NCBI GenBank assembly: GCA_017454015.1
Contig: JAFTDW010000019.1
Location: 1-55,665 of the forward strand
Length of the DNA: 55,665 bases
Reading direction: 5' to 3'
DNA from: Bacteroidales bacterium
GTDB taxonomy: Bacteria; Bacteroidota; Bacteroidia; Bacteroidales; P3
Shown: positions 27,648-52,479 of the stretch, in pieces
How the letters are laid out: each line of letters begins with the position of its first letter
Position numbering within the stretch: position 1 is the first letter of the stretch
The notes under the pieces: generated by a model
Database searches by the model: none
What the model was told of the DNA's origin: nothing
The model's input: only the letters and a program-made list of their open reading frames with translations
Made by a program: the position numbers and the translations under genes

Positions 27648-28622
27648 TTATATCATCTTGAGGTAACCCACCTCTTTCTCGGTGAGTTCGCGCCAGCGTC
27701 CGCGGGGCAGGTCTTTCTTGGTAAGTCCGGCGAATACCACGCGGTCGAGGCGTACCACATCGTAGCCCAGGGCTTCGAAGATGCGGCGCACTATTCGGTT
27801 GCGTCCCGAGTGGAGCTGTATGCCTATCAGGCGGCGGTCGTCGCCGGTGCCGGCGTACTGGATGTCGTCGACTTTAATGAAGCCGTCGTCGAGTTCAAAA
27901 CCCTCGCGTATTTGTTTCATGTGCTCGTGGCTGAGCGGCTTGTCGAGCAGGGCTTCGTATATCTTGTACACGCGTGTCGAGGGGTGGGTGAGTTTCTTGC
28001 TGAGTTCGCCGTCGTTGGTGAAGAGCAGCAGCCCCGTAGTCTGCCTGTCGAGGCGTCCCACAGGGTATATGCGCTCACGGCAGGCGTTGCGCACAAGCAT
28101 CATGACTGTCTTGCGGTTCTGCGGGTCGTCGAGGGTGGTGATATAGTCTTTGGGTTTGTTGAGCAGTATGTAGCGTTTGGTCTCGCTCTGTAGCCGTTCG
28201 CCGCCGTACACCACCACGTCGCCAGGCTTCACCTTGTACCCCATCTCGGTAACCACCTTGCCGTTGACGCTTACGCTGCCAGCGGCAATCAGCACGTCGG
28301 CCTCGCGCCTCGAGCAGATACCTGCGTTGGCAATGTATCGGTTGAGACGTATGGTCTCGTCGTTGTTTTCTTCGAAACCTCGTTTTCTGGCTGCGGCAAT
28401 GTGAGCAAGCTCCCATTGCTCTTGCTTAACGAAAACGTTGGCAGGGGTGGCTTTTCTTGCAGGACTGGTGATTTTGGGGCTTCTGGTATTGCTAGTGCTC
28501 CTGGTGTTGCTAGTACTCCTAGTGCCCCTAGTGTTACTGGTTTTCCTAGTGTTACTAGTGCCCATGGGTTGGCTGGTGCTTTTTGGGGCTCTAGTGGTTT
28601 TAGGCTGGGTTGGTTTCTTCAT
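27648..28622 (-). CDS. rluB: RluB-like 23S rRNA pseudouridine synthase with repeat-derived N-terminal extension
   Basis: Modifies uridine in 23S rRNA. The enzyme proper starts near residue 91 with the S4 domain (IRLNRYIANAGICSRREAD), followed by the RsuA/RluB catalytic domain with YILLNKPKDYITT, the catalytic motif YPVGRLDRQTTGLLLFTNDG and HSGRNRIVRRIFEALGY. The first 90 residues are unusual: residues 8-47 are low-complexity SNTR repeats encoded by a 9-bp CTAG tandem array, and residues 62-87 (NVFVKQEQWELAHIAAARKR and on) are encoded by a copy of the 57-bp dispersed repeat found four more times in the window. An unstructured N-terminal tail is common in this family, but not one made of an interspersed repeat. 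An inner start is possible but no Met lies between residues 20 and the S4 domain. Confidence 0.92.
   Translation of the reverse strand: MKKPTQPKTTRAPKSTSQPMGTSNTRKTSNTRGTRSTSNTRSTSNTRSPKITSPARKATPANVFVKQEQWELAHIAAARKRGFEENNDETIRLNRYIANAGICSRREADVLIAAGSVSVNGKVVTEMGYKVKPGDVVVYGGERLQSETKRYILLNKPKDYITTLDDPQNRKTVMMLVRNACRERIYPVGRLDRQTTGLLLFTNDGELSKKLTHPSTRVYKIYEALLDKPLSHEHMKQIREGFELDDGFIKVDDIQYAGTGDDRRLIGIQLHSGRNRIVRRIFEALGYDVVRLDRVVFAGLTKKDLPRGRWRELTEKEVGYLKMI
28362..28437. repeat. Dispersed repeat B, copy inside rluB coding sequence
   Basis: The 57-bp core (28381-28437) starts CGTTTTCTGGCTGCGGC and ends CTTAACGAAAACG; its ends form an inverted repeat (CGTTTTC/GAAAACG), as do GCAATG and CATTGC inside. 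The left flank with the small hairpin TTTCTTCGAAACC (28362-28380) is also conserved in copies at 39146 and 40321. 57 bp is 19 codons, so the copy stays in frame. Confidence 0.85.
28492..28594. repeat. 9-bp CTAG-centred tandem array inside rluB
   Basis: CTAG begins at 28492, 28510, 28519, 28528, 28546, 28555 and 28591: all spacings are multiples of 9. The units are related to CTAGTGNNT. On the minus strand it encodes the Ser/Asn/Thr/Arg-rich tail. Same period and core as the intergenic array at 24411-24458. Confidence 0.8.
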
Positions 28623-29045
28623 TTAAAATCTCATTTTGTAGGGGAAGGCGGTGTCGAGTTCCTGTTTGTTGCGGAGACCCGCCACTGCGCTGGCCAATAT
28701 TAGGAATATGTCGAGGTTGTGCTCTTTTAGCCATGTCGAGGCTTGCTCGTCGCCTCGGCAGGCAAGGGCGAAGGTAAGGTTGACGGGGTGCATATTGTTC
28801 TGCATCCATACCCTTGAGTTCTGGTCGCCGTCTATGGCATGGCTCACTATGCCGAGCCATCCGTGGCCGTTTTGCGTGAGCCACTGCTCGGCCTCTATGT
28901 CGTCCTGCAGCATGTTGCTGAATGCGGCCAACTCCTTGTAGCCATTGTTTGCTAGCCACTTGAAGTAGTCTTCACGCTCGCCGTCTATGGCCTTGGCCAG
29001 CAGCAGCAGCACTTTGACGTCATATTGTTCCAGCCCTTTACGCAT
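28623..29045 (-). CDS. Small alpha-solenoid-like protein of unknown function
   Basis: Not recognised as a named family. The 140 residues show about four repeats of 26-30 residues with the pattern D-x4-a-x2-W(L/M)-x2-(N/H)-x5-l-x2-a-i-x-G: EDYFKWLANNGYKELAAF, EAEQWLTQNGHGWLGIVSHA, NSRVWMQNNMHPVNLTFALA and ASTWLKEHNLDIFLILASAV. This suggests a short helical repeat scaffold. No signal peptide or transmembrane helix. It ends directly before the rluB start (stop and start adjacent) and follows pheT by 54 bp, so it is probably cotranscribed with both. Confidence 0.75.
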   Translation of the reverse strand: MRKGLEQYDVKVLLLLAKAIDGEREDYFKWLANNGYKELAAFSNMLQDDIEAEQWLTQNGHGWLGIVSHAIDGDQNSRVWMQNNMHPVNLTFALACRGDEQASTWLKEHNLDIFLILASAVAGLRNKQELDTAFPYKMRF

Positions 29046-29099
29046 CGTTTCGTTTCATGGTTTGGCGGTCGATACTGTATGTGCACCCTTTTTGTCGCA

Positions 29100-31580
29100 C
29101 TACTGCCGTATGGAGGCGCCGAGCTGGCTCTCCATCTGTTTTTGCAGGCGGCTCATCACGTTGTCTATCTGGGTGTCGGTAAGGGTCTTGTTGTCGTCTT
29201 GCAGTATGAAGCTGACGGCATACGATTTCATACCTTCGGTGACGCCCTTGCCTTCGTATACGTCGAAGAGCGACACGCGTTTGAGGAGCTTCTTCTCGGT
29301 GGCGAAGGCTGTGCGCTGCACATCGTCGAAGGTCACCTCCTGGCGCAGTATGAGGGCAAGGTCGCGCCGCACCTCCGGGAACTTGGCTATCTCGCAGTAG
29401 GTCACCTCTTTCTTTGGGTATATGGAGAGTAGCAGATCCCAGTTGATGTCAGCGTAGTACACCTCCTGTTTGCAATCCATGCGTCGCAGGGTCTCTTTGC
29501 CCAGGCGGCCTATGGAGAGCAGTTGCTTGTGGCTGTCCTTAAGGGTGTAGGAGAGTCCTTCGGCATAGTATTTCTCGCTGGCTGCGGCTATGACGAGGCG
29601 GGTGGGGTCCACGCGCATGCGGTGCAGAATGTTGGTCACATGGGCTTTGAGGTGGTAGAAGTTGCTCTTTATCGTGCCTGTCATCCAGTTTTCAGGGGTC
29701 TCGGCGCCGGTTATGAAGAGGGAGAGGTGCTGCGTCTCGTCGTAGCGTTTGCCGGTGTCGGTGGCCTCGGGGTTCACTTCGAGGTAGGCGCGGCCAAACT
29801 CAAAGAGTTTCTGGTCGTGGATTTTGTGGTTGATGTTGCGTGCCACACATTCCATTCCACCATAGAGCAGCGTTTGGCGCATCACGTCGAGCTCGCGGCT
29901 CAGCGGGTTGAGTATGGCGACGCTCTTCGAAGCGTCGAAGTCGGGGTTGTCCTTGTAGTAGTCGCTCTTGGTGAGCGAGTTGTTCATTATCTCGAAAAAG
30001 CCGTTGGCTGCCAGGTAGTCGCCAATGGTGTTGCGCAGATGCGCCGTGTTGGGCTTGTTGCTGTACGAGAGGCAGCTGCTAAGCCTTTCGTCGAAAGGTA
30101 TGTTGTCGTAGCCGTATATGCGCATGATCTCTTCCACCACGTCGCATTCGCGGGTCACGTCAACCTTGCAGGTGGGTATCCTCAGCCTCATGCCGTCGGT
30201 GTCCTCCTGCTCTATGGTTATGTCGAGAGAGGTGAGTATGGTGCGTATTTTCTCCACGGGGATGCGTGTGCCCATGAGTCCGAAGATGCGCTCAAAGTTG
30301 ATATCCACTGTGGCTTGAGGTATCGGGGTGGGGTAGAGGTCTACCATGTCGCCGCAAATCTCGCCACCTGCGAGTTCCTTGACGAGCGCTGCGGCGCGTC
30401 GTAGCGCCCATACGGTGATGTTGGGGTCGGCTCCGCGTTCATAGCGGAAGCTGGCGTCGGTCTTAAGGCCGTGGCGCTTGCTGGTCTTGCGTATGCTTAC
30501 GGGGTTGAAGTAGGCACTCTCGATAAATATGTTGCGTGTTTTGGCCGTAACGCCCGAGTCGATGCCTCCAAACACGCCGGCAATGCAGAGCGGCTCCGCC
30601 CCTTGCGGCTTGTCGGCGCATATCATGAGGTCGCGGCTGTCAAGTTTGCGCTCCACATCGTCGAGGGTGCGGAAGGTGGTGCCGTCGGCAAGCCGTTTGA
30701 CCACGATGGCCTGCCCCTCTATTTTGTCGGCGTCGAAGGCGTGGAGCGGCTGCCCAACCTCCATCAGCACAAAGTTGGTTATGTCCACGATGTTGTTGAT
30801 TGGACGCAGCCCCACGGTGCGCAGCTTGTTCTGCAGCCATTCGGGGGAGTCTTTCACCGTGATGTTCCTTATGGTAATGCCGCTGTAGCGCGGGCATAGT
30901 TCGGGCTCCTCCACTCGCACCTTCACGGCGGTGTCGCTGCTTTCCGGTTCCAGTGCCGGTGGCTCCGGCCGTCTCAGCTTGAGCTCTTTGCCTTGGCGTG
31001 TGTTGAGCACTGCCACCACGTCGCGTGCCACGCCTATGTGCGAGGTGGCGTCGCTGCGGTTGGCGGTGATGGCGACCTCCAGCACGCTGTCGCCCTCCAC
31101 ATGGAAGTACTCCTTGGCTGGCATCCCGACAGGCGCGTCGTCGGGCAGCACCATAATGCCGTCGTGGTCGCTCCCAAGCTGCAGCTCATCGGCGGCGCAT
31201 AGCATTCCTTCGCTCACCGCACCGCGCAGCTTGCCTTTCTTTATCTCATAAAACTCGGTGTCCGAGGTGTATATTTTGGTGCCTGTCTGGGCGCACACCA
31301 CTTTCTGTCCTGCCGCCACGTTTGGGGCTCCGCACACTATGTCGAGCGGTCGGTCGCCGCCCACGTCCACCGTGGTGATGTGCAGGTGGTCGGAATTGGG
31401 GTGCGGCTCGCAGGTTAGCACCTGGGCTATCACCACGTGCTCCAAGCCGCCCTTGATGGTTTCCACTTTTTCTACGCCCTCAACCTCCAGTCCGCTGAAA
31501 GTCAGCAGGTCGTCGAGCTCTTCGGGCGTCATGCCGCCCAACTCCACATAGTCTTTAAGCCAGTTGAAAGAAATGTTCAT
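29100..31580 (-). CDS. pheT: Phenylalanine--tRNA ligase beta subunit
   Basis: Beta chain of the (alpha-beta)2 class II PheRS; it holds the tRNA-binding and editing domains. The N-terminus MNISFNWLKDYVELGGMTPE is typical; the EMAP-II-like tRNA-binding domain covers about 40-155 (VIAQVLTCEPHPNSDHL, DIVCGAPNVAAGQKV); the B3/B4 editing region and B5 (GYDNIPF region) follow; the C-terminal FDX-ACB anticodon-binding domain starts near residue 735 (FPEVRRDLALIL, SLFDVYEGKGVTEG). Length 826 is normal. pheS is not adjacent, as is usual in Bacteroidota. Confidence 0.96.
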   Translation of the reverse strand: MNISFNWLKDYVELGGMTPEELDDLLTFSGLEVEGVEKVETIKGGLEHVVIAQVLTCEPHPNSDHLHITTVDVGGDRPLDIVCGAPNVAAGQKVVCAQTGTKIYTSDTEFYEIKKGKLRGAVSEGMLCAADELQLGSDHDGIMVLPDDAPVGMPAKEYFHVEGDSVLEVAITANRSDATSHIGVARDVVAVLNTRQGKELKLRRPEPPALEPESSDTAVKVRVEEPELCPRYSGITIRNITVKDSPEWLQNKLRTVGLRPINNIVDITNFVLMEVGQPLHAFDADKIEGQAIVVKRLADGTTFRTLDDVERKLDSRDLMICADKPQGAEPLCIAGVFGGIDSGVTAKTRNIFIESAYFNPVSIRKTSKRHGLKTDASFRYERGADPNITVWALRRAAALVKELAGGEICGDMVDLYPTPIPQATVDINFERIFGLMGTRIPVEKIRTILTSLDITIEQEDTDGMRLRIPTCKVDVTRECDVVEEIMRIYGYDNIPFDERLSSCLSYSNKPNTAHLRNTIGDYLAANGFFEIMNNSLTKSDYYKDNPDFDASKSVAILNPLSRELDVMRQTLLYGGMECVARNINHKIHDQKLFEFGRAYLEVNPEATDTGKRYDETQHLSLFITGAETPENWMTGTIKSNFYHLKAHVTNILHRMRVDPTRLVIAAASEKYYAEGLSYTLKDSHKQLLSIGRLGKETLRRMDCKQEVYYADINWDLLLSIYPKKEVTYCEIAKFPEVRRDLALILRQEVTFDDVQRTAFATEKKLLKRVSLFDVYEGKGVTEGMKSYAVSFILQDDNKTLTDTQIDNVMSRLQKQMESQLGASIRQ

Positions 31581-31681
31581 GTCAGAGTATGGTTAAGATT
31601 GTTATTCGGGATTATTGTTTGTCTCAGCTGTTTTTTCTCTTTGGTAGCTGTAGTAGAGGTTTGTCAATAATAGTCATGGCG

Positions 31682-33388
31682 CTATTTCATTTTTCCCCAG
31701 CTGTCTTTGAGGGTGCAGGTGCGGTTGAACACTAGGTAGTCTGGTGTGGAGTCGCTGTCGGTGCAGAAGTAGCCCATGCGCTCAAACTGGTAGCGTGCAA
31801 TGCCGTCGTTCCATTTCCCGCACTCTTTCTCGGTCTCTTGCAGCGATGGCTCGCACTTGGCGGTGACCACATGCAGCGAGTCGGGGTTAAGGTTGTCAAG
31901 GAAGGTCTTGCCTTCGGGAGCCTCGTCGGGTGTCTCGGTGGCGAAGAGTCTGTCAAAGAGCCGTACCTCGGCGTCGATGGCGTGCTGTGCGCTGACCCAG
32001 TGGATGGTGCCTTTTACCTTGCGTCCGTCGGGAGCGTCGCCGCCGCGTGTCGCAGGGTCGTAGGTGCAGTGTATGCAGGTGATGTTGCCTTCGGCATCCT
32101 TCTCCACGCTCTGGGCTGTTACAAAGTAGGCGTAGCGCAGACGCACCTCCTGGCCTATGGCCATGCGGAAGAATTTCTTGGGAGCCACCTCCATGAAATC
32201 CTCGCGCTCTATGTAGAGCTCCCGTGAGAACGGCACCTCGCGAGTGCCGTCGCACTCGTCCTCGGGGTTGTTGACAGCCTGGAGCATCTCTGTCTGCCCC
32301 TCGGGATAGTTGTCTATGACTACCTTGACGGGGTCGAGCACTGCCATGCGGCGCGGCGCCACCTTGTTCAGGTGCTCACGCAGGCTGAACTCCAGGAGTG
32401 AATAGTCAATGACATTGTCGCGTTTGGCCACACCTATGCGGTCGCAGAAAGCTCGGATGCTCTCTGGGGTGTAGCCGCGGCGGCGGAACCCGCAGATGGT
32501 GGGCATGCGCGGGTCGTCCCAGCCGCTGACATGGCCCTCTTTGACAAGCTGCAGCAGTTTGCGCTTGCTCATCACTGTGTAGTTGATGTTGAGGCGGGCA
32601 AACTCGTACTGGTGGCTTGGCCAGATGCCAAGCTTTTCTATGAACCAGTCGTAGAGCGGGCGGTGTATGTCGAACTCCAGCGTGCAGATGCTGTGGGTAA
32701 TGTGTTCTATTGAGTCGCTCTGACCGTGAGCGTAGTCGTACATGGGGTAGATGCACCACTTGTTGCCGGTGCGGTGGTGGTCTGTGTGCAGTATGCGGTA
32801 CATGATGGGGTCGCGGAACTGCATGTTGGGATGTGCCATGTCGATCTTGGCACGCAGCACCTTCTCACCGTCGGCGAACTCGCCGTTGCGCATGCGGCGC
32901 AGGAGGTCAAGGTTCTCCTCCACGCTGCGGTTGCGCCAGGGGCTCTCCTTGCCTGGCTGTGTCACCGTGCCGCGTCCGGCGCGTATCTCCTCAAGGCTCT
33001 GGTCGTCCACATAGGCCAGCCCGCGTGTCACCAGCAGCTCGGCCCACTCGTAGAGCTGTTCAAAATAGTCGCTTGCATAGTGCATCTCCTTCCAGTGGAA
33101 TCCAAGCCACTTAATGTCCTGCTGTATGGAGTCCACATATTCGGTGTCTTCCTTCACGGGGTTCGTGTCGTCGAAACGCAGGTTCGTCGTGCCGCCGTAT
33201 CTCTCGGCGAGGCCGAAGTTGAGGCAGATGGATTTTGCGTGTCCAATATGAAGATAGCCGTTGGGCTCCGGCGGAAAACGGGTATGAATCTTGGTGTAAG
33301 TACCGTCGGCCAAGCCTCTCTCGATAATCTCTTCGAGGAAGTTGAGTGTGCGTTTTTCGGGTTCTGTCGAGTTGGTAGTGTCTTGCAT
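31682..33388 (-). CDS. glnS: Glutamine--tRNA ligase
   Basis: Class I aminoacyl-tRNA synthetase charging tRNA-Gln. The HIGH motif lies at residues 47-50 ([19 protein letters not shown]), with RFDDTNP next; the KMSKS-like motif is VMSKRKL near residue 270; [20 protein letters not shown] is diagnostic for GlnRS against GluRS. The C-terminal beta-barrel anticodon domains carry [13 protein letters not shown]. Length 568 is normal. It has its own promoter (33453-33460), upstream of pheT by 101 bp. Confidence 0.96.
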
Positions 33389-33429
33389 TTTTGGTATATG
33401 TTATTAAATATTGGCAAGTTAGTATGCAC

Positions 33430-33446
33430 GCCACACAGTGTGTGGC
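33430..33446. promoter_or_regulatory. 17-bp palindrome in the glnS leader
   Basis: GCCACACA-G-TGTGTGGC is a perfect inverted repeat around one central base, lying between the glnS promoter and start codon (42 bp from the start). It could be an operator or an RNA hairpin in the leader; no regulator is suggested. Confidence 0.4.
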
Positions 33447-33452
33447 AATCTG

Positions 33453-33460
33453 CAAAAATA
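33453..33460 (-). promoter_or_regulatory. -7 promoter element for glnS
   Basis: The minus strand reads TATTTTTG, matching TAnnTTTG, 65 bp upstream of the glnS ATG. No convincing -33 box. The rest of the gap to clpB (33389-33631) holds the palindrome, a partial repeat-B end and no gene. Confidence 0.5.
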
Positions 33461-33502
33461 ACATTTTTTTGTCATTAATACATAAAAAAGTGTTTGCGCT
33501 AT

Positions 33503-33530
33503 GCCGCAGCCAGAAAACGAGGGTTTAGAA
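33503..33530. repeat. Partial copy of dispersed repeat B
   Basis: Only one end is present: GCCGCAGCCAGAAAACG followed by AGGGTTTAGAAGAAACC, which is the flank and left end of repeat B in minus orientation. The other half is absent, so it is a truncated copy in the clpB-glnS intergenic region. Confidence 0.65.
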
Positions 33531-33631
33531 GAAACCATACCCATGCATCCTGCATGACAAAATGGCAGTGCGCCTTGCTGTGGTAAACTGTTTGTATCCG
33601 TTATCAACAGGAAACAAAAACAATTAAAGCC

Positions 33632-36235
<2,604 letters not shown>

Positions 36236-36266
36236 GTGCAGTTATGCACTCGGTACACAATTTTGA

Positions 36267-36330
36267 CCACGAATAACACAAATCAACACGAATGATCCCT
36301 CTAATTCGTAAAATTCGTGTTATTCGTGTT
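36267..36330. repeat. ACGAAT-rich inverted repeat after clpB
   Basis: CCACGAATAACACAAATC with CACGAAT on the left pairs with ATTCGTGTTATTCGTG on the right, forming a long imperfect hairpin. ACGAAT/GCGAAT units of the same kind occur at about 6915-6940. Such units are common in Bacteroidota intergenic DNA; here it may act as clpB transcript end. Confidence 0.6.
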
Positions 36331-36405
36331 CTATAAATAAACCAAATTATGCAATTCTTGCGTTATTAGTACTTGAGACTCTACCACGGTTCAAAAAGCC
36401 AAGAC

Positions 36406-36426
36406 GCTCGCGGTATCACCGCGAGC
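36406..36426 (+). terminator. Intrinsic terminator-like hairpin
   Basis: GCTCGCGGT (36406-36414) and ACCGCGAGC (36418-36426) form a perfect 9-bp stem with an ATC loop, followed by TTTCTT. Best taken as the distal terminator of clpB, about 170 bp after its stop. Confidence 0.65.
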
Positions 36427-36570
36427 TTTCTTGTATGTGTGTGGAGGTGATTCTATGACCTCGGACTTGAACAAAAAAGTTTCGCGTTTTCTTTTTATTG
36501 TCCAATACCATAGCCCTGTAATCGGAGAAAAAAATGCCAATCCAAATAAAAGTTGGTATCTTCGCACCCT

Positions 36571-36674
36571 CGTTTTCTGGCTGCGGCAATATGAGCAAGC
36601 TATTCGCCGTCCATGTTCTTATTTCATAGGTGCTCATGACCTTGGGTTCCCATTGCTCTTGCTTAACGAAAACG
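36571..36674. repeat. Composite dispersed repeat: B interrupted by an inverted module A
   Basis: Left half of B (36571-36600, CGTTTTCTGGCTGCGGC), then module A in reverse orientation (36601-36642, TATTCGCCGTCCATG to GGTGCTCATGACCT), then the right half of B (36651-36674, CATTGCTCTTGCTTAACG). In the copies at 39146 and 40321 module A lies the other way round within the same B halves. Confidence 0.8.
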
Positions 36675-36840
36675 TTCTATTTATTCTTTGAGAGTGCCTG
36701 TTCTCCGCTGTGCTATCGAAATGCCACTGGCATTTCTTCACTCCGAGACGAATATTTCTTCTATCTTGCAGTCCCACACAGCGCTACGCTTGTGCGGGGT
36801 TATTGAGAGTTAGCCTCTATGAGGCTATTTTTAGAGGTTG
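36675..36840. repeat. Repeat E, uninterrupted copy
   Basis: Starts TTCTATTTATTC, contains the perfect palindrome GAAATGCCACTGGCATTTC (36718-36736), then CCCACAC, TTGTGCGGGGTTATT, and ends GAGAGTTAGCCTC-TAT-GAGGCTA with TTTTTAGAGGT. The same blocks occur in reverse order and orientation at 48720-49060. Confidence 0.75.
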
Positions 36841-36910
36841 CCTTTAAACTGGTCCACCGCTGTTTTTTTTAGTTAGAGGTTACCTTTAAACTGGTCCATC
36901 GCTGTTTTTT
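36831..36910. repeat. Two tandem copies of a 42-bp unit
   Basis: TTAGAGGTTGCCTTTAAACT with GGTCCACCGCTGTTTTTT begins at 36831 and again, nearly identical (GGTTACC, GGTCCATCGC), at 36873. Each copy ends in a T run. They directly precede the promoter of the S8 protease gene. Confidence 0.75.
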
Positions 36911-39143: not shown

Positions 39144-39145
39144 GG

Positions 39146-39313
39146 TTGGTTTCTTCGCAGCCTTGTTTTCTGGCTGCGGCAATGTGAACCAAAGGTCATG
39201 TGGCGAGCCTGCGAATACCTTGAAATAAAAAATAATGAAATGAGCAGCACCTATGAAATAAAAACAAGGACAGCGAATAGCTTGCTCACATTGCTCTTGC
39301 TTAACGAAAACGT
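39146..39313. repeat. Composite dispersed repeat: B halves around modules C and A
   Basis: Left flank and half of B (39146-39188, GTTGGTTTCTTCG and TTGTTTTCTGGCTGCGG), module C (39195-39252, GGTCATGTGGCGAGCC to GAGCAGCACC), module A (to 39283, ACAAGGACAGCGAATAGC), then the right half of B (CATTGCTCTTGCTTAACG, ending 39313). It begins 3 bp after the S8 protease stop. Confidence 0.8.
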
Positions 39314-39360
39314 TCATAAACAACGGATGGTAAATACACGGATAGCGAATAATTGAAACC

Positions 39361-40545
39361 ATGGTCGACTTCTTCAAGAAAAGCGGACTCAGTCAGTTGG
39401 TGGCGATATTGTTGCTGACAGTGGCTCTGTGGGTTCATCCGTTCATAGAGCCGCCAGTCATGGAGGCGTCGCCCTATTCAGGGGTGCTCTATGTGTGGCT
39501 CTGCGGTCTGCTGGGTTCGTTGCCACGTGTGGCCGTAGCCATAGGACTGTTGCTCACACTGGCCGAGGCGGCCTGGCTCAATGTCTTGCTGGTCAACAAC
39601 AAACTGCTGCCCAACAATAGCTTCTTGCCAGCGTTGTGCTTCATACTTCTCTCGGGTTTTGGCTGCGGTAGCAAGGCACTTACCGAGATGAGCCTTGTCA
39701 ACTTTATCATAATCTACGGAGCGGCGCAGTTTATGACGGGTATGCAGCCTATCCTGTCGCGCGTCAAGATGTGCAATGCCATCACGTCCATCTCGTTGGC
39801 GACTCTTATCTATGTACCGGCAATCTTTTTGCTGGTGCCGTTTATGGTGCAGTTTTTCGTGTACAGAATGTATCACTGGAAGGATCTTGTGGCGTTGCTG
39901 CTGGGACTTTTGGCGCCGTATATACTGATATTTACAGTGGCATTCATGAGCGATGCCACAGGCTCTTTGTGGTTGCAGACCGGCGGTAGGTTGCAGGTCA
40001 AATCTTTAGCCATAGGCGGGAGTGGAGTGTTGTCGACATGGCTGTACATCGTGGCGCTGCTTCCAGTGTTGATAGCAACAGTCAAAGGCATAACTCACAC
40101 AGGTGAGCAGACGGCAGTTTACAAGCGCAATGCCGGAGCCTATCTGCTACCGTTGCTGGCAAGTGTGCCGTTGGTGTTATATGGCGGCCTGTGGCCGTTG
40201 CCGCTACAGGCGGTGGCAATGCCCGCGGCTTTTGCCGCATCAGTGACGCTGTGTAACATAAGGAGGCGCAAGTGGGTGGCCGATATATGCTTGATATTGT
40301 TTATATTGTCAGAGTTTGTTGTTGGTTTCTTCGAAACCTCGTTTTCTGGCTGCGGCAATGTGAACCAAAAGGTCATGAACCAAAAGGACATGAGCACCTA
40401 TGAAATAAAAACAAGGACAGCGAATAGCAAACTCCCATTGCTATTGCTTATTGAAAACGTTCCATTTCATGAGTCGTTTTCTGGCTACGGCAGTGTAAGC
40501 AAGCTCCCACTGCTCTTGCTGAACGAAAACGTTGAATTTGTATAA
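39361..40545 (+). CDS. DUF6427-like polytopic membrane protein with repeat-derived C-terminal tail
   Basis: Inner-membrane protein with about ten hydrophobic helices over residues 10-325 (for example LSQLVAILLLTVALWV, VLIGLLL-type segments, ILFILSEFVV). It resembles the Bacteroidota DUF6427 integral membrane family; function unknown. The natural end is probably near residue 320: from 40321 the frame runs through a composite dispersed repeat and then a second B copy, giving a 74-residue tail (FFETSFSGCGNVNQK, STYEIKTRTANSKLPLLLL, SKLPLLLLNENVEFV) before the stop at 40543-40545. The stop also lies inside the start region of rnhB, with a 10-bp overlap of frames short of the rnhB ATG. Confidence 0.75.
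   Translation: MVDFFKKSGLSQLVAILLLTVALWVHPFIEPPVMEASPYSGVLYVWLCGLLGSLPRVAVAIGLLLTLAEAAWLNVLLVNNKLLPNNSFLPALCFILLSGFGCGSKALTEMSLVNFIIIYGAAQFMTGMQPILSRVKMCNAITSISLATLIYVPAIFLLVPFMVQFFVYRMYHWKDLVALLLGLLAPYILIFTVAFMSDATGSLWLQTGGRLQVKSLAIGGSGVLSTWLYIVALLPVLIATVKGITHTGEQTAVYKRNAGAYLLPLLASVPLVLYGGLWPLPLQAVAMPAAFAASVTLCNIRRRKWVADICLILFILSEFVVGFFETSFSGCGNVNQKVMNQKDMSTYEIKTRTANSKLPLLLLIENVPFHESFSGYGSVSKLPLLLLNENVEFV
40321..40459. repeat. Composite dispersed repeat within the 3' end of the membrane-protein gene
   Basis: Flank and left half of B (GTTGGTTTCTTCG, CGTTTTCTGGCTGCGGC), then module A (GAGCACCTATGAAATAAAAA to GCGAATAGC), then a worn right half of B (CATTGCTATTGCTTATTG, ending GAAAACG at 40459). 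All of it is read as protein in the upstream gene. Confidence 0.8.
40459..40534. repeat. Dispersed repeat B, left member of a 76-bp inverted pair
   Basis: Contains the complete 57-bp core (40475-40531) plus the flank GTTCCATTTCATGAGT. It matches the reverse complement of 41771-41846 with two mismatches over 76 bp. The pair brackets rnhB and the DUF6913-like gene. Confidence 0.85.
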
Positions 40546-41770: not shown

Positions 41771-41846
41771 CAACGTTTTCGTTCAGCAAGAGCAGTGGAA
41801 GCTTGCTTACACTGCCGCAGCCAGAAAACGACTCATGAAATGGAAC
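41771..41846. repeat. Dispersed repeat B, right (inverted) member of the pair
   Basis: Complete 57-bp core in reverse orientation (41774-41830), followed by ACTCATGAAATGGAAC, the mirror of the left copy flank. Lies 20 bp upstream of the dapA start, so it makes up most of the dapA leader. Confidence 0.85.
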
Positions 41847-43907: not shown

Positions 43908-44025
43908 AATCCGCTGTTTATGTATCCCCAAAACGCAACATTCTCAAAATAACGGAATACCGTGATTACGAAATAACGGAATATCACTCCCCCAAACATA
44001 AAGAAACTAAAAACCCAAAATTAAT

Positions 44026-44529: not shown

Positions 44530-44570
44530 AGGAAGCTGGCATTACGACAAAGCCCCTCTCGTCAACACTT

Positions 44571-44716
44571 TATTCGCTGTCCGTGTTTTTATTTTTACGG
44601 GTGCTGCTCATTTCATTATTTTGATTTCAAGGTATTCGCAGGCTCGCCACATGACCTCAGTTGCTCACTGTCCATGTTTTTATTTCTATTTGTGTTCGCA
44701 GCCTTCGGCTCATAGC
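44571..44716. repeat. Cluster of dispersed modules A and C before the DUF6029 gene
   Basis: Reverse-oriented module A (TATTCGCTGTCCGTG, from 44571), module C (44600-44656, TGCTGCTCATTTCATTATTT to CATGACC), and another module A (TTGCTCACTGTCCATG, about 44660-44690). No B core is present. The frame upstream of the DUF6029 start runs through it, which would mislead start-site prediction. Confidence 0.75.
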
Positions 44717-44746
44717 TTCAGCAATTCCCACAAAACAATTCCTCTA

Positions 44747-46408: not shown

Positions 46409-46439
46409 CAAAAAACTCTTAATTCCATTATTCCGCTTC

Positions 46440-47291
46440 ATGATAAAAAAATACCTGATTCCTGCATTGTTTGTGGCAGTTGCGCTTCTCTATGCGTCGT
46501 GCGACAAGGTCGAAGCCGACGCCAACGGCTACTACATCTATTATTCGGGAGCCATCGGCGACTGGGTCGACGGACCCGCCATTGCCGACCACTCGCCGCA
46601 TGTGCTGCTCGAGAAATACACCGGCGTGCGCTGCCTCAACTGCCCCGATGGCGACGCCGTCATCCACGCAGCCATGAACACCTACGGCAGTGCCTTGATA
46701 CCAATATCCATACACGACAGCAGCTCGTTCACACGTCCCTACGGCAGTGACCAGCGCCTCAGCACCCCAGTGGGCAACACCTGGAGCCGTTATTTTGGCA
46801 TCAGTTCCTACCCCACAGCTATCTGCAATCGCACAGAGATGGGCGGCACTCTCCAGTTCAATCCCGCCGCGGGAGTGTCGGCGGCTGTTGAAGCCGCATT
46901 GTCGCAGCCTGTCATGATGGCTCTCGCCGCCTCGATGGAGCGCGACGGAAACCACTATGCCGTGACCGTCAGCCTCGAATATCTGCAGGACTACCCCAAT
47001 CCGCTTACTGTCACACTCCTGCTCTTGGAGGACTCGGTGCGTGCCACACAGCTGCAGCCCGACGGGCGCACCAAGGACACCGCCTATCTCCACAGCCACC
47101 TGCTGCGCGAAGCTATCACCAACCCGTGGGGCGCCGATGTCGATGCCGACGGACACAAAGGTACCAAGCGTCAGGCTCGTTTCACGCACACCTCCACCAA
47201 TCCACTTGTCAATCACAGCCATTGCTATATAGTGGCTTTCGTCTCCGACAAAAACACACGGCAGATACTCGCCGCAACAGAGTGTAGGTAG
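46440..47291 (+). CDS. Omp28-related outer-membrane lipoprotein
   Basis: Predicted lipoprotein (MIKKYLIPALFVAVALLYASC, Cys21). The domain resembles Omp28 of Porphyromonas, a thioredoxin-like fold: VLLEKYTGVRCLNCPDGDAV holds a CLNC motif at the thioredoxin active-site position, and YFGISSYPTAICNR has the cis-Pro loop. Length 283. It lies between the DUF6029 barrel and the MATE gene (1 bp gap to the latter). Function as adhesin or redox protein is not settled. Confidence 0.85.
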   Translation: MIKKYLIPALFVAVALLYASCDKVEADANGYYIYYSGAIGDWVDGPAIADHSPHVLLEKYTGVRCLNCPDGDAVIHAAMNTYGSALIPISIHDSSSFTRPYGSDQRLSTPVGNTWSRYFGISSYPTAICNRTEMGGTLQFNPAAGVSAAVEAALSQPVMMALAASMERDGNHYAVTVSLEYLQDYPNPLTVTLLLLEDSVRATQLQPDGRTKDTAYLHSHLLREAITNPWGADVDADGHKGTKRQARFTHTSTNPLVNHSHCYIVAFVSDKNTRQILAATECR

Positions 47292-47292
47292 C

Positions 47293-48660
47293 ATGAACAG
47301 GCGTATTCTGCAACTGGCTTTGCCCAACATCATAACCAATATCACCGTGCCGTTGCTCGGCATGGTCGACATGGCTATTGTAGGGCACCTTTCGCAGAGC
47401 CACATAGGAGCCATAGCCATTGGCACCTCCATGTTCAACCTTATATATTGGAACTTCGGATTTCTGCGCATGGGCACCAGCGGCTTCACCGCCCAGGCCT
47501 ACGGGGCGCGCCGTCTCGACGAGGCTGTTGCCACCCTCGTCAGAGCCTTCACCATAGCCCTTGCCATTGCCGCCTTGCTGATAGCGTTGCAGTGGCCGCT
47601 GGCAATGGCTACGCGTCTCGCCTTCAACGGCAGCGACGAGGTCATGACCCTTGCTCTTTCCTATTTTTTTGTCAGAATATGGGCGGCACCGGCAACGTTG
47701 GGTTTGTATGCCATAAAAGGCTGGATGATAGGCATGCAGAACAGTAAGCTGCCCATGTGGATAGCCATAGCCCTCAATGTGGTCAACATAGTGTGCAGTC
47801 TGCTCTTTGTGCTTGTGTTGCATTGGGGCATAAAGGGCGTTGCCCTCGGCACTGTTGTGGCGCAATACAGCGGTCTGGCAATGGGCCTATGGCTCCTCCA
47901 CCGCTACTATGGACGTGTCATCCGCGGCCATCTCAATATTGCAGGCAGTCTGCGGTTGGATGCCATGCGGCACTTCTTCCATGTCAATGGCGACATCTTC
48001 CTGCGCACAGTCTGTCTTGCGTTGGTCTTTGCATTCATAACCGCCGCAAGTGGGCGCATAGGCGACGACATCCTTGCTGTCGATGCCCTGCTGTTGCAGT
48101 TCTTCACGGTGTTCAGCTACATCATGGACGGCTTTGCCTATGCCGGCGAGTCGTTGGTAGGCCGCTACATAGGAGCCGCCGACGGCAAGAGCCTGCGGCG
48201 CACCATAAGACTGCTCATGCTGTGGGGTGTGGCACTCACCGTGACGTTCACCATAGCCTATGCCTTGGGGGGTTCGGCTTTTCTGGGCCTTTTCAGCGAC
48301 AAGCCCGAGGTCTCGGCTGCTGCCAAGCCGTACCTCTTCTGGACCCTGATAACCCCCGTGTGCGGTTTCGCCGCTTTCCTTTTCGACGGCATATTCATTG
48401 GCGCCACGGCTTCGCGCCACATGCGCGACAGCATGTTTGTGGCAACTGCCGTATTCTTTGCGGTCTACTATGGGCTGCGGGCTTTGCTTGGACTCTACGA
48501 CAACCCCGACGCATACCTTTGGAACAACGTGCTTTGGACGGCTTTCATGGCCTACCTTGTGTTTCGCGGCGCCATGCAGGCCCTCATGCTCAACCGCGCC
48601 GTCTATTCCAAGGCGCCGCAAGCCGCCTCCACCCTTTGCAATCTCAAAATAGCGAAATAA
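47293..48660 (+). CDS. MATE-family efflux transporter (DinF-like)
   Basis: Twelve-helix Na+ or H+ coupled multidrug exporter in the inner membrane. The first helices show LALPNIITNITVPLLGMVDMAIVGHLS, split here as family landmarks LALPNIITN and MVDMAIVGHLS; FGFLRMGTSGFTAQAYGA and MDGFAYAGESLVGRYIG mark the two halves and point to the DinF branch. Length 455 is normal. Begins immediately after the Omp28 gene. Substrate unknown. Confidence 0.93.
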   Translation: MNRRILQLALPNIITNITVPLLGMVDMAIVGHLSQSHIGAIAIGTSMFNLIYWNFGFLRMGTSGFTAQAYGARRLDEAVATLVRAFTIALAIAALLIALQWPLAMATRLAFNGSDEVMTLALSYFFVRIWAAPATLGLYAIKGWMIGMQNSKLPMWIAIALNVVNIVCSLLFVLVLHWGIKGVALGTVVAQYSGLAMGLWLLHRYYGRVIRGHLNIAGSLRLDAMRHFFHVNGDIFLRTVCLALVFAFITAASGRIGDDILAVDALLLQFFTVFSYIMDGFAYAGESLVGRYIGAADGKSLRRTIRLLMLWGVALTVTFTIAYALGGSAFLGLFSDKPEVSAAAKPYLFWTLITPVCGFAAFLFDGIFIGATASRHMRDSMFVATAVFFAVYYGLRALLGLYDNPDAYLWNNVLWTAFMAYLVFRGAMQALMLNRAVYSKAPQAASTLCNLKIAK

Positions 48661-49091
48661 TGAGATAACGTGACAACGATACTAACCCTACCAATAAAAA
48701 CAATCACGAAAACAATAGGTGACCTCTAAAAATAGCCTCGGAGAGGCTAACTCTCAATTGCTTAGGCCATGAACTGAGGTCATGTGGCGAGCCTGCGAAT
48801 ACCTTGAAATCAAAATAATGAAATGAGCAGCACCCGTAAAAATAAAAACATGGACAGCGAATAGCACCTATGAAATAAAAACACGGATAGCGAATAACCC
48901 CGCACAAGGAACCATTGGTCATGAGCACAGATGAAATCAAAAATATGGACAGCGAATAATGCAGTGTGGGGCAACAAGATAAAAACGACATGCGTCCCGG
49001 ATGTGAAGAAATGCCAGTGGCATTTCGATAGCGTAGCGGAGAATATACGCTCTCAATGAAAAAATAGAACCCACCAATAATCATTAACGCC
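48661..49091. other. 431-bp intergenic region occupied by nested repeats
   Basis: No gene is supported. Almost all of it is accounted for by repeat E split by modules A and C (48720-49060). A short AATAATGAGATAACGTGAC segment at 48655-48680 resembles other AATAACG repeats in the window. No clear promoter for the M6 protease gene was found. Confidence 0.8.
48720..49060. repeat. Repeat E interrupted by an array of modules C and A
   Basis: In reverse orientation to 36675-36840: ACCTCTAAAAATAGCCTC and GAGGCTAACTCTCAAT (48721-48759), then inserted module C (48778-48834) and three module A copies (48835-48864, 48865-48896, 48918-48959) with AACCCCGCACAAG between, then GTGTGGGGCAACAAGAT, the palindrome GAAATGCCAGTGGCATTTC (49008-49026), TCGATAGCGTAGCGGAGAA and CTCTCAATG. 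Confidence 0.78.
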
Positions 49092-52000
49092 ATGATAAAG
49101 AAACTTTTTTTCCTGACACTCTTTGCCGTTGCGGCTTTCTTTGCCGAAGCCCACTACGTCAAAAGCATGCCAGTCAAGCAGCTCCAGCCCAACGGCGACA
49201 CGCTGTATTGCTACGTCAGCGGCGACGAGTTCTACCACTGGCTACACGACGCCAACGGCTACACCATCGTCAAGCACCCCTCCACAGGCTACTACGTCTA
49301 CGCCTGCAATGACACCAGTGCCCCCTTCGCCGCCTACCCCAACAACATGTTGCATGCCAGCAACCATGTGGCAGGTGTTGTAAGCCCTGCGGCGCAGCCC
49401 GACCTTCAGCCCAACATCATGCCTACTCTCAGGCAGGTCGAGCGGCTGCGCAAGGTGTGGGATGTGCCGATGTCCATGCAGCCCGACCCCGCCGAGTATC
49501 CCAAGACCAGTGGAGCCAACCACGGTACTATCAACAATATAGTGGTCTTTGTCAGATTCAACGACGATGCCGACATCACATACCCCCTCGACACCATCGA
49601 AGCCATGTTCAACGACACATCGGCCAACGCCGTCTCCATGCGCAGCTATTTTCAGCAGGCCTCGTATGGCAAACTCAACATTGTCACCCACTTCTTTCCG
49701 TCACAAACCTCAAGCAGCCATATCGTCTCGTACCGCGACAGCCACAACCGCGCCTATTTCATGCCGCGCGACTCCGCCAACTCGCAGGGCTATGCAGACA
49801 GCGACGAGCGCCGTAGCCGCGAGTTCGCGCTGATAGAGAATGCTGTCAACTACATCAACCGTAACAGCCCTATACCCTCCACTCTCAACATCGACTACAA
49901 CAACGACAACATGGTCGACAATATCTGCTTCATCTTCAAAGGCACCTACACAGGCTGGAGCGACCTGCTGTGGCCTCACAAGTGGAGCCTCTACGACCGT
50001 ACGGTGCGCATCAACGGCAAGCGCGTCTACACCTTCAACATACAGCTCGAGGGTTCCGGCAGCCATTATTTCAGTACAAGCGTGTTCTGCCATGAGATGT
50101 TCCACACTCTCGGCGCCCCAGACCTCTACCATTATGACTACTTCTCCAACGCCAATCCCGTGGGCTGCTGGGACCTGATGGAGTACAACCAGACTCCGCC
50201 GCAGCACATGGGGGCTTATATGAAACTCCGCTACGGCAACTGGCTCGACAGCATACCGGAATTGCGCACACCGGGAAACTACACGCTCCACTCCGTGGCC
50301 GACCAGTCTCCCCGCGGCCGAGCCAACAACTGCTACGCTATACCCACCACCAACCCGACACAATACTATATACTGGAGTTCCGCAACAACCAGGACCGCT
50401 ATGAGACCTCACTGCCAGGCACCGGCCTGCTCGTCTACCGCGTCAACACAGTCTACAACGGCAATGCCAGTTTCAACGACACCAATATCCTCGATGAAGT
50501 ATATCTCTTCAAGCCAGGGGCTTTCAACGACACAACGCCAGGCAACTACCGGCAGGCCTACTTCTCGCAGCTGGCGCACCGCACCAGGTTCTGCGACACC
50601 ACCAACCCCCATCCGTTTCTCGCCGTACCTATGGCTCAGAACGTCGTGGACACCACCGTGCTGATATCCGACATCAGGGTGAGCGGCGACTCGGTAACCT
50701 TCTATTATGGCCGGCGTATGCCTCTTGCACCGTGCGCAGACACCGAGATGTGCAACCTCTATGTCTCGTCTGTCGACACCTACGGCGACACATGGCAAGG
50801 CTGCTACATGGGCATAGAGGGCTCCAATGGATACATCTATGCGAGTGTGGCCAACAGCGTGAGTTGTTCGTCCAACACCAGCTGCTACCAGTACGACACT
50901 GTACGTATATGCTCCACCGACACCATCACGCTCCGCTGGAACGAGGGTCTTTACTCCAGCGAGGCAGGCTTCACGGTGACGAGTGCCGTGGGCTTGCAGC
51001 TCTACAACCATCAGGCTGGCGAGGACCTGCCCGGCCGCGTGCTGGCACGCGTGTACAATCCCTGCGACAGCAGCTGCTTTGTCGACACCCTCTTTACCAA
51101 CATAGTCTACACCGTCAATGCGGTGAGCGGCAATCCTACGCGCGGCAGCGTGACGGGAGGCGGCAGCTACAGGCAGGGTGCCCCGGTAACACTTACGGCA
51201 ACACCCGCGCGCGGCTGTCGTTTTGTGCGCTGGACCGAGGGCGCCAATCTCTACACCAGCAACCCACTCGGCTTCATAGCCACGGCCAACGCCACCTACA
51301 CCGCATGGTTCGAGCATGTGAGCTGCACACTCTCTGTGAGCTCCAACAACAACTCGCTGGGCTCCGTGACGGGGGGCGGCACCTATAACCTCTACGACAG
51401 CGCTGTGATGAGTGCCATAGCTGCCAACGGCTGTCGCTTTGTACGCTGGAACGACGGCTCCACCGTCAACCCCCGCACCATCACAATGATGGGCGACACA
51501 GCCTTTACGGCTACCTTCGAACTCATACGCCACACTGTCACGGCGCGTTCCAACAACACCGTCATGGGCTCCGTGACAGGGGGCGGCACCTATGCGCACG
51601 GCACCACGGCAACTCTCAACGCGCAGCCTGCCTTGGGTTATCGCTTCAACCACTGGAGCGACAACCTGATGACCAACCCGCGCACCATTACCGTGCTGAG
51701 CGACACAGTCATTACGGCCTACTTTGAGCCGTGCCACTACTGGATTTCGGTCTCCTCGGAAAACCAGACAATGGGTATGGCCACAGGTGGCGGCGAATAC
51801 CTCTACGGCGACACCGCCGTGCTCACCGCCTCGCCACGCCAAGGCTATGAGTTTGTCTCGTGGAGCTCGCCGGGTGGCTCATCCACAGCCAATCCCATGC
51901 ATCTTGTGGTGCGCTCCGATTCAAGCTTTGTGGCTACATTCAACCAGCTGCCCGAAGACACCACGTCAATCTCCGATGTGCATAATGTGGCAGCCCCCAA

Positions 52001-52196
52001 GGTGTATACTGTGGGGAGGCTCCTTGTAGTGTCTCAGTCCGAGCCGGTGGCATGGCACCTCTACGACGTGCAGGGGCGCAGCCTCCATGTCTCGGCAGGC
52101 AACGAAGCCCGCGAGCAGGTGCAGCTGCCTGCCCCGGGACTCTATGTGGTCCGCTTCGCATCCGGCCTTGTGGTTGTTCGCTGTCCATATTTTTGA
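49092..52196 (+). CDS. M6-family metalloprotease with InlB-type repeats and T9SS sorting domain
   Basis: Large secreted zinc protease, predicted T9SS cargo. Signal peptide MIKKLFFLTLFAVAAFFAEA. The M6 domain (about 130-420) has the zinc motif HEMFHTLGAPDLYHYD, His334-Glu335 and His338. A beta-rich domain follows, then four InlB B-like repeats of about 65 residues (about 675-955), each with GSVTGGG, a GCRFVRW or GYxFxxW core and a TAxFE end. The C-terminal 65 residues are a short sorting domain (AWHLYDVQGRSLHVSAG, LPAPGLYVVRFASG). The final codons (RCPYF) lie in a copy of module A, so the end has been rewritten by a repeat. Substrate and target unknown. Confidence 0.9.
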   Translation: MIKKLFFLTLFAVAAFFAEAHYVKSMPVKQLQPNGDTLYCYVSGDEFYHWLHDANGYTIVKHPSTGYYVYACNDTSAPFAAYPNNMLHASNHVAGVVSPAAQPDLQPNIMPTLRQVERLRKVWDVPMSMQPDPAEYPKTSGANHGTINNIVVFVRFNDDADITYPLDTIEAMFNDTSANAVSMRSYFQQASYGKLNIVTHFFPSQTSSSHIVSYRDSHNRAYFMPRDSANSQGYADSDERRSREFALIENAVNYINRNSPIPSTLNIDYNNDNMVDNICFIFKGTYTGWSDLLWPHKWSLYDRTVRINGKRVYTFNIQLEGSGSHYFSTSVFCHEMFHTLGAPDLYHYDYFSNANPVGCWDLMEYNQTPPQHMGAYMKLRYGNWLDSIPELRTPGNYTLHSVADQSPRGRANNCYAIPTTNPTQYYILEFRNNQDRYETSLPGTGLLVYRVNTVYNGNASFNDTNILDEVYLFKPGAFNDTTPGNYRQAYFSQLAHRTRFCDTTNPHPFLAVPMAQNVVDTTVLISDIRVSGDSVTFYYGRRMPLAPCADTEMCNLYVSSVDTYGDTWQGCYMGIEGSNGYIYASVANSVSCSSNTSCYQYDTVRICSTDTITLRWNEGLYSSEAGFTVTSAVGLQLYNHQAGEDLPGRVLARVYNPCDSSCFVDTLFTNIVYTVNAVSGNPTRGSVTGGGSYRQGAPVTLTATPARGCRFVRWTEGANLYTSNPLGFIATANATYTAWFEHVSCTLSVSSNNNSLGSVTGGGTYNLYDSAVMSAIAANGCRFVRWNDGSTVNPRTITMMGDTAFTATFELIRHTVTARSNNTVMGSVTGGGTYAHGTTATLNAQPALGYRFNHWSDNLMTNPRTITVLSDTVITAYFEPCHYWISVSSENQTMGMATGGGEYLYGDTAVLTASPRQGYEFVSWSSPGGSSTANPMHLVVRSDSSFVATFNQLPEDTTSISDVHNVAAPKVYTVGRLLVVSQSEPVAWHLYDVQGRSLHVSAGNEAREQVQLPAPGLYVVRFASGLVVVRCPYF

Positions 52197-52280
52197 TTTC
52201 ATAGGTGCTCATGACCTTAGTTGTTCGCTGCTCGTATTTTTAACTTCATAGGTGCCCATAACCTTCGGTTCATGTCACTG
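52174..52280. repeat. Two reverse module A copies at the end of the M6 protease gene
   Basis: TTGTTCGCTGTCCATATTTT to GTGCTCATGACCT (52174-52217) and TTGTTCGCTGCTCGTATTTT to GTGCCCATAACCT (52221-52265), followed by TCGGTTCATGTCACTGCC. The first copy supplies the stop codon of the upstream gene. Confidence 0.78.
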
Positions 52281-52327
52281 CCACATATAAAATAAATGAA
52301 TACTAAATTCTTTACCTAATTATTCTG

Positions 52328-52414
52328 GAATGCCCTGAAAGGGCATAAATCCAACAGCCCAGGGCACCGCCCTGGGTATAAACGGCATCAAAATATATGC
52401 GCCCTGTAAGGGCA
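52328..52414. repeat. Triple-hairpin GCCCT repeat
   Basis: Three small stems in a row: TGCCCT-GAA-AGGGCA (52331-52345), CCCAGGGC-ACC-GCCCTGGG (52358-52376) and GCCCT-GTA-AGGGC (52401-52413). This arrangement matches a short interspersed repeat I know to be frequent in Bacteroidota genomes; its function is unknown. Confidence 0.75.
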
Positions 52415-52437
52415 AAATCAATTTTAGGTATAACTGA

Positions 52438-52479
52438 GGTCATGAGCACCTATGAAATAAAAAACATTACAGCGAATAA
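52438..52479. repeat. Module A copy before gcvT
   Basis: GGTCATGAGCACCTATGAAA followed by TAAAAAACATTACAGCGAATA, forward orientation, nearly identical to the module in 40366-40428. Confidence 0.75.

What the first reader, a model, noticed from the sequence alone, without database searches (positions are those of the whole stretch)
28362..52479. A modular family of palindromic dispersed repeats (B, A, C, E) spread over 24 kb
Seen directly: a 57-bp core B (ends CGTTTTC and GAAAACG as inverted repeats, with inner GCAATG/CATTGC) is complete at 28381-28437, 40475-40531 and 41774-41830; split by other modules at 36571-36674, 39146-39313 and 40321-40459; truncated at 33503-33530. Module A (GAGCACCTATGAAATAAAAA to ACAGCGAATA) occurs at least ten times, module C three times, with B, alone or in E. 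The blocks are shuffled, nested and inverted, unlike a simple MITE or REP. No transposase is nearby, so mobilisation in trans or a recombination-driven process is inferred.
Basis: partly seen in the sequence, partly recalled or inferred. Interest (0 to 1): 0.75.

Follow-up and report, generated by a model that had tools for sequence, protein, structure and literature searches.

The report
Mobile hairpin repeats grafted into genes
A gut bacterium's genome is peppered with dozens of tiny hairpin-shaped DNA pieces that appear to copy themselves into new places, even into essential genes without breaking the reading frame, and what moves them is not yet known.

Summary
The "B" core is part of a 72-76 nt unit: GTT, a head (S1 or S2), then a hairpin core. 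At least 54 near-complete copies lie in the 2.3 Mb genome; 42 of 54 differ from the majority by at most 2 of 60 bases. The hairpin is conserved by compensatory changes. Related hairpins occur in 98 of 118 congeners searched but only weakly in 7 of 246 other genomes of the order.

Both units look mobile. The 46-47 nt A unit sits at precise points whose unfilled form exists elsewhere in the same genome (22 of 36 sites; offset joins 0-1, mispaired flanks 5-9). One of 37 B units has an exact unfilled partner. Several B copies lie in frame inside conserved genes (IleRS, RluA-type synthase, GH92, acyltransferase). All 29 congener IleRS loci read lack it.

No Y1 (RAYT/IS200) transposase was found in this draft genome, and 30 congener Y1 loci searched carry no such hairpin. 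Best reading: non-autonomous palindromic elements that work like Rickettsia palindromic elements, in a rumen-type Bacteroidales genus, moved by an unidentified, probably Y1-independent activity. New variant of a known kind.

The parts
28362..28439 (+). S2-type head + B core (75-nt gain as delimited by the pattern), inside the ORF 27648-28622 (-) of an S4/RsuA-type pseudouridine synthase, in frame, in its N-terminal linker
   Evidence: The peptide is in none of 27 congener linkers parsed of 29 loci; but the G014 linker holds a diverged hairpin of the same family (L140:1635-1694)
33501..33536 (-). truncated B unit (S2-type head plus left part of core)
36552..36676 (+). S2 head + B core with an inverted 47-nt A unit inserted in the apical hairpin (insert 36602-36648)
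   Evidence: same arrangement at C18:4005-4112
36701..36739 (-). module D
36802..36843 (+). stem-loop module (E)
39145..39314 (+). S2 head + B core with a 92-nt C-type block at GTG^AGC (insert 39187-39278), just after the stop of a subtilase/T9SS gene
   Evidence: block absent in G011
40321..40461 (+). S2 head + B core with p2 + A at GTG^AGC (63-nt insert 40363-40425); read as C-terminal extension of the 394-aa ORF
   Evidence: G011 ortholog ends before it
40459..40533 (+). S1 head + B core, tandem to the previous unit
41772..41846 (-). S1 head + B core between the DUF6913 gene and dapA
   Evidence: absent in four congeners read there and no R1 match in 29 congener loci around this gene pair, L101-L129
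44571..44662 (-). module C (A unit with x1-x2 block inside)
48717..48758 (-). stem-loop module (E)
48771..48863 (+). module C
48863..48896 (+). A (q part)
48924..48958 (+). degenerate A (q part)
49005..49063 (+). module D
52174..52218 (-). A unit over the 3' end of the 1034-aa ORF (49092-52196)
52238..52280 (-). degenerate A
52327..52431 (+). K repeat (hairpins), carrier of the next A unit
52432..52477 (+). A unit at TTTTAGGTAT^AACATTTAGC, read by eye (not among the 36 patterned sites); unfilled form at C6:28737 and C4:2807

Best explanation
These are short non-autonomous mobile elements built from hairpins. The B unit (GTT-head-core, net gain about 72-76 nt) lands at a GTT and keeps GTT at both borders. 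The A unit (46-47 nt, AAC...GAAT) lands precisely, mostly between G and A, with no duplication beyond what matching letters could hide. Shown: high copy number, homogeneity, precise presence/absence, nesting of A in B and in other repeats, hairpin covariation, in-frame residence in conserved genes. Inferred: the event is gain rather than precise loss; the substrate is a folded single strand and short words, some in apical hairpins, are the targets; an enzyme acts in trans. Inserts of 72 or 75 nt are multiples of three and 3 of the 6 frames of the S1-B unit are open, so copies in tolerant loops, linkers and protein ends can survive and add peptides, as Rickettsia palindromic elements do. They spread as selfish DNA; a benefit to the host is not shown.
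For: 54 near-complete B copies, 18 identical over 60 nt. B: exact 29-of-29 unfilled site (C23:71161 filled, C7:3563 unfilled). A: 22 of 36 joined-flank sites found unfilled at <=2 mismatches, against 0-1 of 36 for ten offset joins and 5-9 for shuffled pairings. Congeners lack the copies: IleRS 0 of 29 loci read; dapA gap and two gene ends in G011; no hairpin in 29 congener loci around the dapA pair. Covariation: 13 of 16 pairs with double changes, 126 cells against 45.4 in shuffles. Domain matches run across B in IleRS, RluA-type, acyltransferase and GH92 ORFs. Open frames of the S1-B unit. Genus: 99 of 119 genomes, own included; order: own and 7 others of 247.
Against: No same-species strain could be compared, so gain versus precise loss is not formally settled. 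Only 1 of 37 B units gave an exact unfilled partner; a second matched at 4 mismatches and a third hit is only the border of another unit. Some A unfilled sites are merely shorter A arrays, and shuffled pairings score 5-9 of 36, so the net signal is smaller than 22. No mobilising enzyme was identified. One covariation measure is weak (24 further pair types against 21.3, reached by 25 of 500 shuffles), and the alignment was fitted to the model and contains some reverse-strand matches of the same copies. In one congener (G014) the RsuA-like linker also holds a family hairpin, so that place is not simply empty elsewhere. The genome is a draft (93.86% complete).
Confidence: 0.75

Rival explanations
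1. REP/BIME elements spread by a RAYT or other Y1 (IS200/IS605-type) transposase that this genome has lost or whose gene fell in an assembly gap.
For: Hairpin units, mosaic with short motifs and insertion without clear duplication fit HUH chemistry (recalled knowledge). 72 of 118 congeners hold a Y1 gene over the cut-off.
Against: Y1_Tnp 0 in the own genome. B-rich G062 and G078 score 0 and B-rich G107 is not among the 73 genomes with a match. 0 R1 matches in 30 loci of 2.0-3.3 kb around Y1 genes, a part of all Y1 matches. None of 54 copies has GTAG before the stem.
Confidence: 0.2
2. No enzyme: the modules are multiplied and shuffled by replication slippage, template switching between hairpins and gene conversion.
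For: Tandem arrays of A (period 46) and B (period 72-76), an inverted apical part in one B copy, modules joined at short shared words, and gaps and loops that in congeners carry other simple repeats.
Against: Unit ends are the same at many unrelated sites, the join is exact to the base (offset joins 0-1 of 36), and single B units occur in unique coding sequence.
Confidence: 0.2
3. They are functional RNA or DNA sites (terminator, attenuator, nucleoid or recombinase sites) kept by selection at their places.
For: Hairpin conservation with covariation; many copies lie between genes.
Against: The places tested are not conserved between congeners; copies lie within genes in several frames; no Rfam match in the window at gathering scores.
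Confidence: 0.04
4. Assembly artefact or chance similarity.
For: The genome is a draft of 63 contigs and several contigs end in repeats (e.g. C6, C18, C42).
Against: Frames stay open through the inserts; related hairpins recur in other genomes of the genus.
Confidence: 0.01

Closest known systems
Rickettsia palindromic elements (RPE; also Wolbachia WPE)
   Same: Palindromic, many copies, between genes and in frame inside unrelated genes, some orthologous places possibly hot spots (passages of PMC3767692 and PMC10969869).
   Different: Different phylum, gain of about 72-76 nt instead of 100-150 bp, head + core build with tandem sharing of GTT, and a second nested 46-nt unit. RPE sequences were not compared.
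CGTC-tagged REPs
   Same: Short palindromes, some inside genes, RAYT genes not flanked by them (passages of PMC3733652).
   Different: B has CGAC, not CGTC, beside its stem; in congener copies CGTC occurs but overlaps the stem; unit longer.
GTAG REPs / BIMEs with RAYT
   Same: Mosaic of palindromic units and short linking motifs (BIME anatomy recalled). REPs are targets of IS elements (passages of PMC1525189), as B is of A.
   Different: No GTAG at the stem; no Y1/RAYT found in the genome or beside hairpins in the congener loci tested.
MITEs
   Same: Short non-autonomous repeats with presence/absence sites.
   Different: Unit ends are not inverted repeats (GTTCCAT...GAAAACGTT; AACTGAG...GCGAAT); no clear duplication for A; GTT at B borders may be target or element.
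PARCEL repeats
   Same: Palindromic DNA coding for tandem peptides of 25 residues (abstract of PMC2996958).
   Different: B is also dispersed singly in unrelated conserved genes; no such domain was named among Pfam matches of 10 B-bearing ORFs.

Membership tests
Rickettsia palindromic element | palindromic repeat with many dispersed copies | tested here: met
Rickettsia palindromic element | sits in frame inside unrelated protein genes without destroying the frame | tested here: met
   IleRS, RluA-type, acyltransferase, GH92, RsuA-like ORFs open through B; protein function itself not tested
Rickettsia palindromic element | length about 100-150 bp | tested here: not met
   as delimited by a pattern: 21 of 37 runs 72 nt, 2 multiples of 72, 4 of 75, 4 of 76, 6 arrays or slipped borders
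Rickettsia palindromic element | sequence related to RPE families | not tested
   no RPE sequences were loaded
GTAG REP / BIME | GTAG at the foot of the stem | tested here: not met
   the four bases before TCGTTTTC in 54 copies are TGAG 39, ACCC 8, AACC 5, TGGG 1, TTAG 1
GTAG REP / BIME | RAYT (Y1) gene in genome or flanked by the repeat | tested here: not met
   draft genome and 30 loci only, so a missed gene is possible
CGTC REP | unpaired CGTC at one end | tested here: not met
   CGAC in own copies; in congener copies CGTC overlaps the stem (read)
MITE | terminal inverted repeats at the exact ends | tested here: not met
   unit ends read
MITE | target-site duplication | tested here: inconclusive
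   A: none beyond ambiguous A letters; B: one GTT in the unfilled site, GTT on both borders when filled
PARCEL | 25-residue amphipathic tandem motif | tested here: inconclusive
   no such domain named in Pfam results of 10 B-bearing ORFs; the PARCEL model itself was not run

The most novel reading that the evidence does not exclude
A two-layer system of mobile hairpins, genus-wide in rumen-type Bacteroidales, moved by an unknown Y1-independent activity that reads short words, some of them at hairpin tips. It grafts frame-neutral peptides into essential proteins, at loops and linkers that different species fill with different repeats, so that protein segments of a whole genus are being rewritten by selfish DNA.
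Probability: 0.3. Interest if true: 0.82.

Novelty: new variant of a known kind. Interest (0 to 1): 0.62.

Why it matters
Palindromes in frame inside genes are best described from Rickettsia; PMC3767692 says other bacterial palindromic repeats lie mostly outside genes, while PMC3733652 reports intragenic REPs in several species (passages). Here a recently amplified family in a large gut genus sits in several conserved genes, and over a hundred congener genomes can serve as controls. That makes two open questions testable: what moves palindromic repeats without a known transposase, and whether selfish hairpins build new protein segments. The exact A and B junctions define the unit ends that any enzyme must cut.

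Tried and rejected
RAYT/Y1 mobilisation: searched in own genome, genus and 30 loci; not supported. Phage carriage: 5 viral-contig hits to an 18-mer are the same phage stretch by chance, no B unit; an A 20-mer gave 0. Integron attC (GTT core): looked at by reading only; B lacks the RYYYAAC...GTTRRRY arrangement recalled for attC; not pursued. Rfam: no match in the window at gathering scores. Naming the host: the one genome-contig scan leaves out the own genome; of its 5 hits two are Bacteroidales MAGs, one from goat reticulum and one named RUG (recalled as rumen); no species name is claimed; the other three (two Bifidobacterium, one Sumerlaeaceae) were not examined. Hairpin-loop targeting: of 8 non-B contexts of A folded, the point lies in a clear loop once (K) and a weak one once (A itself), unpaired outside any loop in the rest; in both B contexts and in the B target it falls inside a short inner stem, so loop preference is only a suggestion. 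Papers: six searches listed nothing that describes these repeats in Bacteroidales; only listings, and passages of the named papers, were seen.

Full report
1. What is in the window. Reading all copies together changes the unit. B is GTT + head + core: head S1 (GTTCCATTTCATGAG) or S2 (GTTGGTTTCTTCGCAACC, with variants), then a 60-nt core TCGTTTTC...GAAAACGTT. In tandem, neighbours share one GTT. A second core (B2) combines with the same heads, so heads and cores assort. A is a 46-47 nt unit, AACTGAGGTCATG + AGCACCTATGAAATAAAAACATGGACAGCGAAT. C is an A unit with another block at its ATG^AGC point.

2. The family is genome-wide. In the own genome (2,306,065 bases, 63 contigs) B gives 60 BLAST matches, partial ones included, and A gives 88. 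In the pieces I fetched, 54 near-complete B copies were aligned; more lie outside them (C47, C32:4646). Of the 54, 18 equal the majority over 60 nt and 42 differ by at most 2, which I read as a recent burst.

3. The hairpin is real. Within the genome B copies differ at four positions that pair in the inner stem: 40 carry G/C with A/T, 5 carry A/T with G/C, and 9 are mixed. Across 56 distinct rows from own and congener loci, 13 of 16 pairs show double changes, with 126 such cells against 45.4 in shuffles; every slid control is far lower. One measure is weak: 24 further pair types against 21.3, reached by 25 of 500 shuffles. The alignment was fitted to model R1 and includes some reverse-strand matches. 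Single folds are only modestly better than shuffles.

4. Distribution. R1 finds matches at E<=0.001 in 99 of 119 genus genomes, own included (98 of 118 congeners), up to 46 per genome, which is the number scored, with several equal-scoring copies within species such as G003, G107, G129 and G030. In 247 genomes of the order, the own genome and 7 others have matches at E<=1e-4, all 7 weak. Both searches used the stricter filters that lose weak matches. BLAST with the full S1-B unit hits 6 of 120, own included, so species versions have diverged; S1- or S2-like heads are recognisable in G107, G084, G028 and G031. A tandem A query hits 13 of 119, own included, best in G011.

5. Presence and absence. 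G011 is the nearest relative found (about 75% DNA identity). It has no B between the DUF6913 gene and dapA; its ortholog of the 394-aa membrane protein ends without the A/B extension; its subtilase gene ends without the following block. R1 finds no hairpin in 29 congener loci around the dapA pair, L101-L129. The dapA gaps of G011 and G005 hold other tandem repeats, and that of G061 holds other repeats and a relative of module E/H.

6. Filled and unfilled sites within one genome. For 36 A runs found by a pattern I joined 12 nt of each flank and searched the fetched pieces: 22 joins occur elsewhere at <=2 mismatches. Ten joins offset by 3-10 nt gave 0 or 1 of 36; mispaired flanks gave 5-9. Distinct contexts include the K hairpin (TGGAATGCCCTG^AAAGGGC), TTTTAGGTAT^AACATTTAGC, GCCTGCG^AATACC, AATAATG^AAATGAGC, GGCTGCG^AACAC, CTCATG^AAATGGAAC inside S1, and ATG^AGCACC inside A itself. 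The base before is G in 23 of 36 and the base after is A in 34 of 36. Some of the 22 are only shorter arrays. The window inserts at 36602-36648, 39187-39278 and 52432-52477 were read by eye, not by the pattern; the patterned window site at 40378 gave no unfilled match because another p block precedes it. For B, 37 runs were tested: one has an exact unfilled partner (29 of 29, with a single GTT), one a match at 4 mismatches, and a third hit is only another unit's border.

7. Inside genes. B is open in frame within IleRS (NCBIfam TIGR00392 matches residues 15-758 around the insert at about 241-267), an RluA-family synthase (subfamily model matched below its cut-off, Pfam above), a PlsC-like acyltransferase and a GH92 hydrolase, where domain matches run across the insert. 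It is also in the linker of a CHU_C (T9SS) protein, in a protein with a sub-threshold SprT match, in what I read as a lipoprotein signal region (C52:7581, no family match) and in the N-terminal linker of the RsuA-like protein of the window. That is 8 of 54 copies by my reading; the others were not classified one by one. IleRS loci were returned for 29 of the congeners that matched; all 29 lack the insert, and the same loop carries other species-specific peptides. For the RsuA-like protein 27 of 29 returned congener loci parsed; none has this peptide, but the linker of G014 holds a diverged hairpin of the same family in frame (L140:1635-1694, E 0.0016), either a second landing or shared descent. 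In congeners a related hairpin is open in frame in UppP/BacA of G124 and in an IS5-type transposase in 3 of 5 loci (G063, G138, G087; the G071 and G028 copies gave no spanning frame). As delimited by the pattern, gains are multiples of three in at least 27 of 37 runs (21 of 72, 2 of 144 or 216, 4 of 75), but the pattern's left border slips at some copies. Three of six frames of the S1-B unit are open.

8. What moves them. No Y1_Tnp was found in the own genome. 72 of 118 congeners have one over the cut-off, yet G062 and G078, rich in B, show none and G107 is not among those with a match. No hairpin lies within 30 loci of 2.0-3.3 kb around Y1 genes. None of 20 window ORFs scanned in Pfam is a transposase. 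Unit ends are not inverted repeats. I therefore infer an activity in trans that acts on folded DNA, not yet identified; template switching without an enzyme is a serious rival.

9. Comparison. By behaviour the closest match is the Rickettsia palindromic element: passages of PMC3767692 and PMC10969869 describe palindromes in frame in genes and possible hot spots. CGTC REPs also seem to lack a dedicated transposase and can lie in genes (PMC3733652, passages). Length, tags, modular heads and the nested A unit differ, so I do not file it in either. Six searches of the paper library listed no description of these repeats.

10. Limits. One draft genome of the species; no strain comparison; the mechanism is inferred; the host is named only as a rumen-type Bacteroidales through two relatives.

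Noticed in passing
L237-L265 (IleRS loop before YAIAWTTTPWTLPSN): The same IleRS loop carries different low-complexity peptides in many congeners (for example LSDLSDLSD, NSKLKIE...FSIFNSQL), as if it were a general landing place for short repeats.
   Followed up: partly
L140:1635-1694: The N-terminal linker of the RsuA-like protein of G014 holds a diverged in-frame hairpin of the B family, in the same protein region as the window copy.
   Followed up: partly
L130, L132, L134 (gap before dapA): In these congeners the gap before dapA is filled by different families of short repeats.
   Followed up: partly
L195, L196, L205: An IS5-type transposase (DUF772 + DDE_Tnp_1 in L195) carries an in-frame hairpin of the B family at the same place in three species.
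   Followed up: partly
L194:1270-2151: UppP/BacA of congener G124 is open through an in-frame B-type hairpin.
   Followed up: partly
window 36260-36340; C7:3500-3640: A separate ACGAATT/AATTCGT hairpin repeat family, one of whose copies is the exact unfilled site of a B unit.
   Followed up: no
window 36831-36910: A 38-nt direct repeat (TTAGAGGTTGCCTTTAAACTGGTCCACCGCTG...) in two copies 42 nt apart, next to module E.
   Followed up: no
contig ends of C6, C18, C26, C42: Several contigs of the draft genome end inside A or B arrays, so the assembly probably breaks there and copy numbers are lower bounds.
   Followed up: no
window 39279-39294: In the split copy 39145-39314 the apical part of the B core is inverted relative to other copies.
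   Followed up: no
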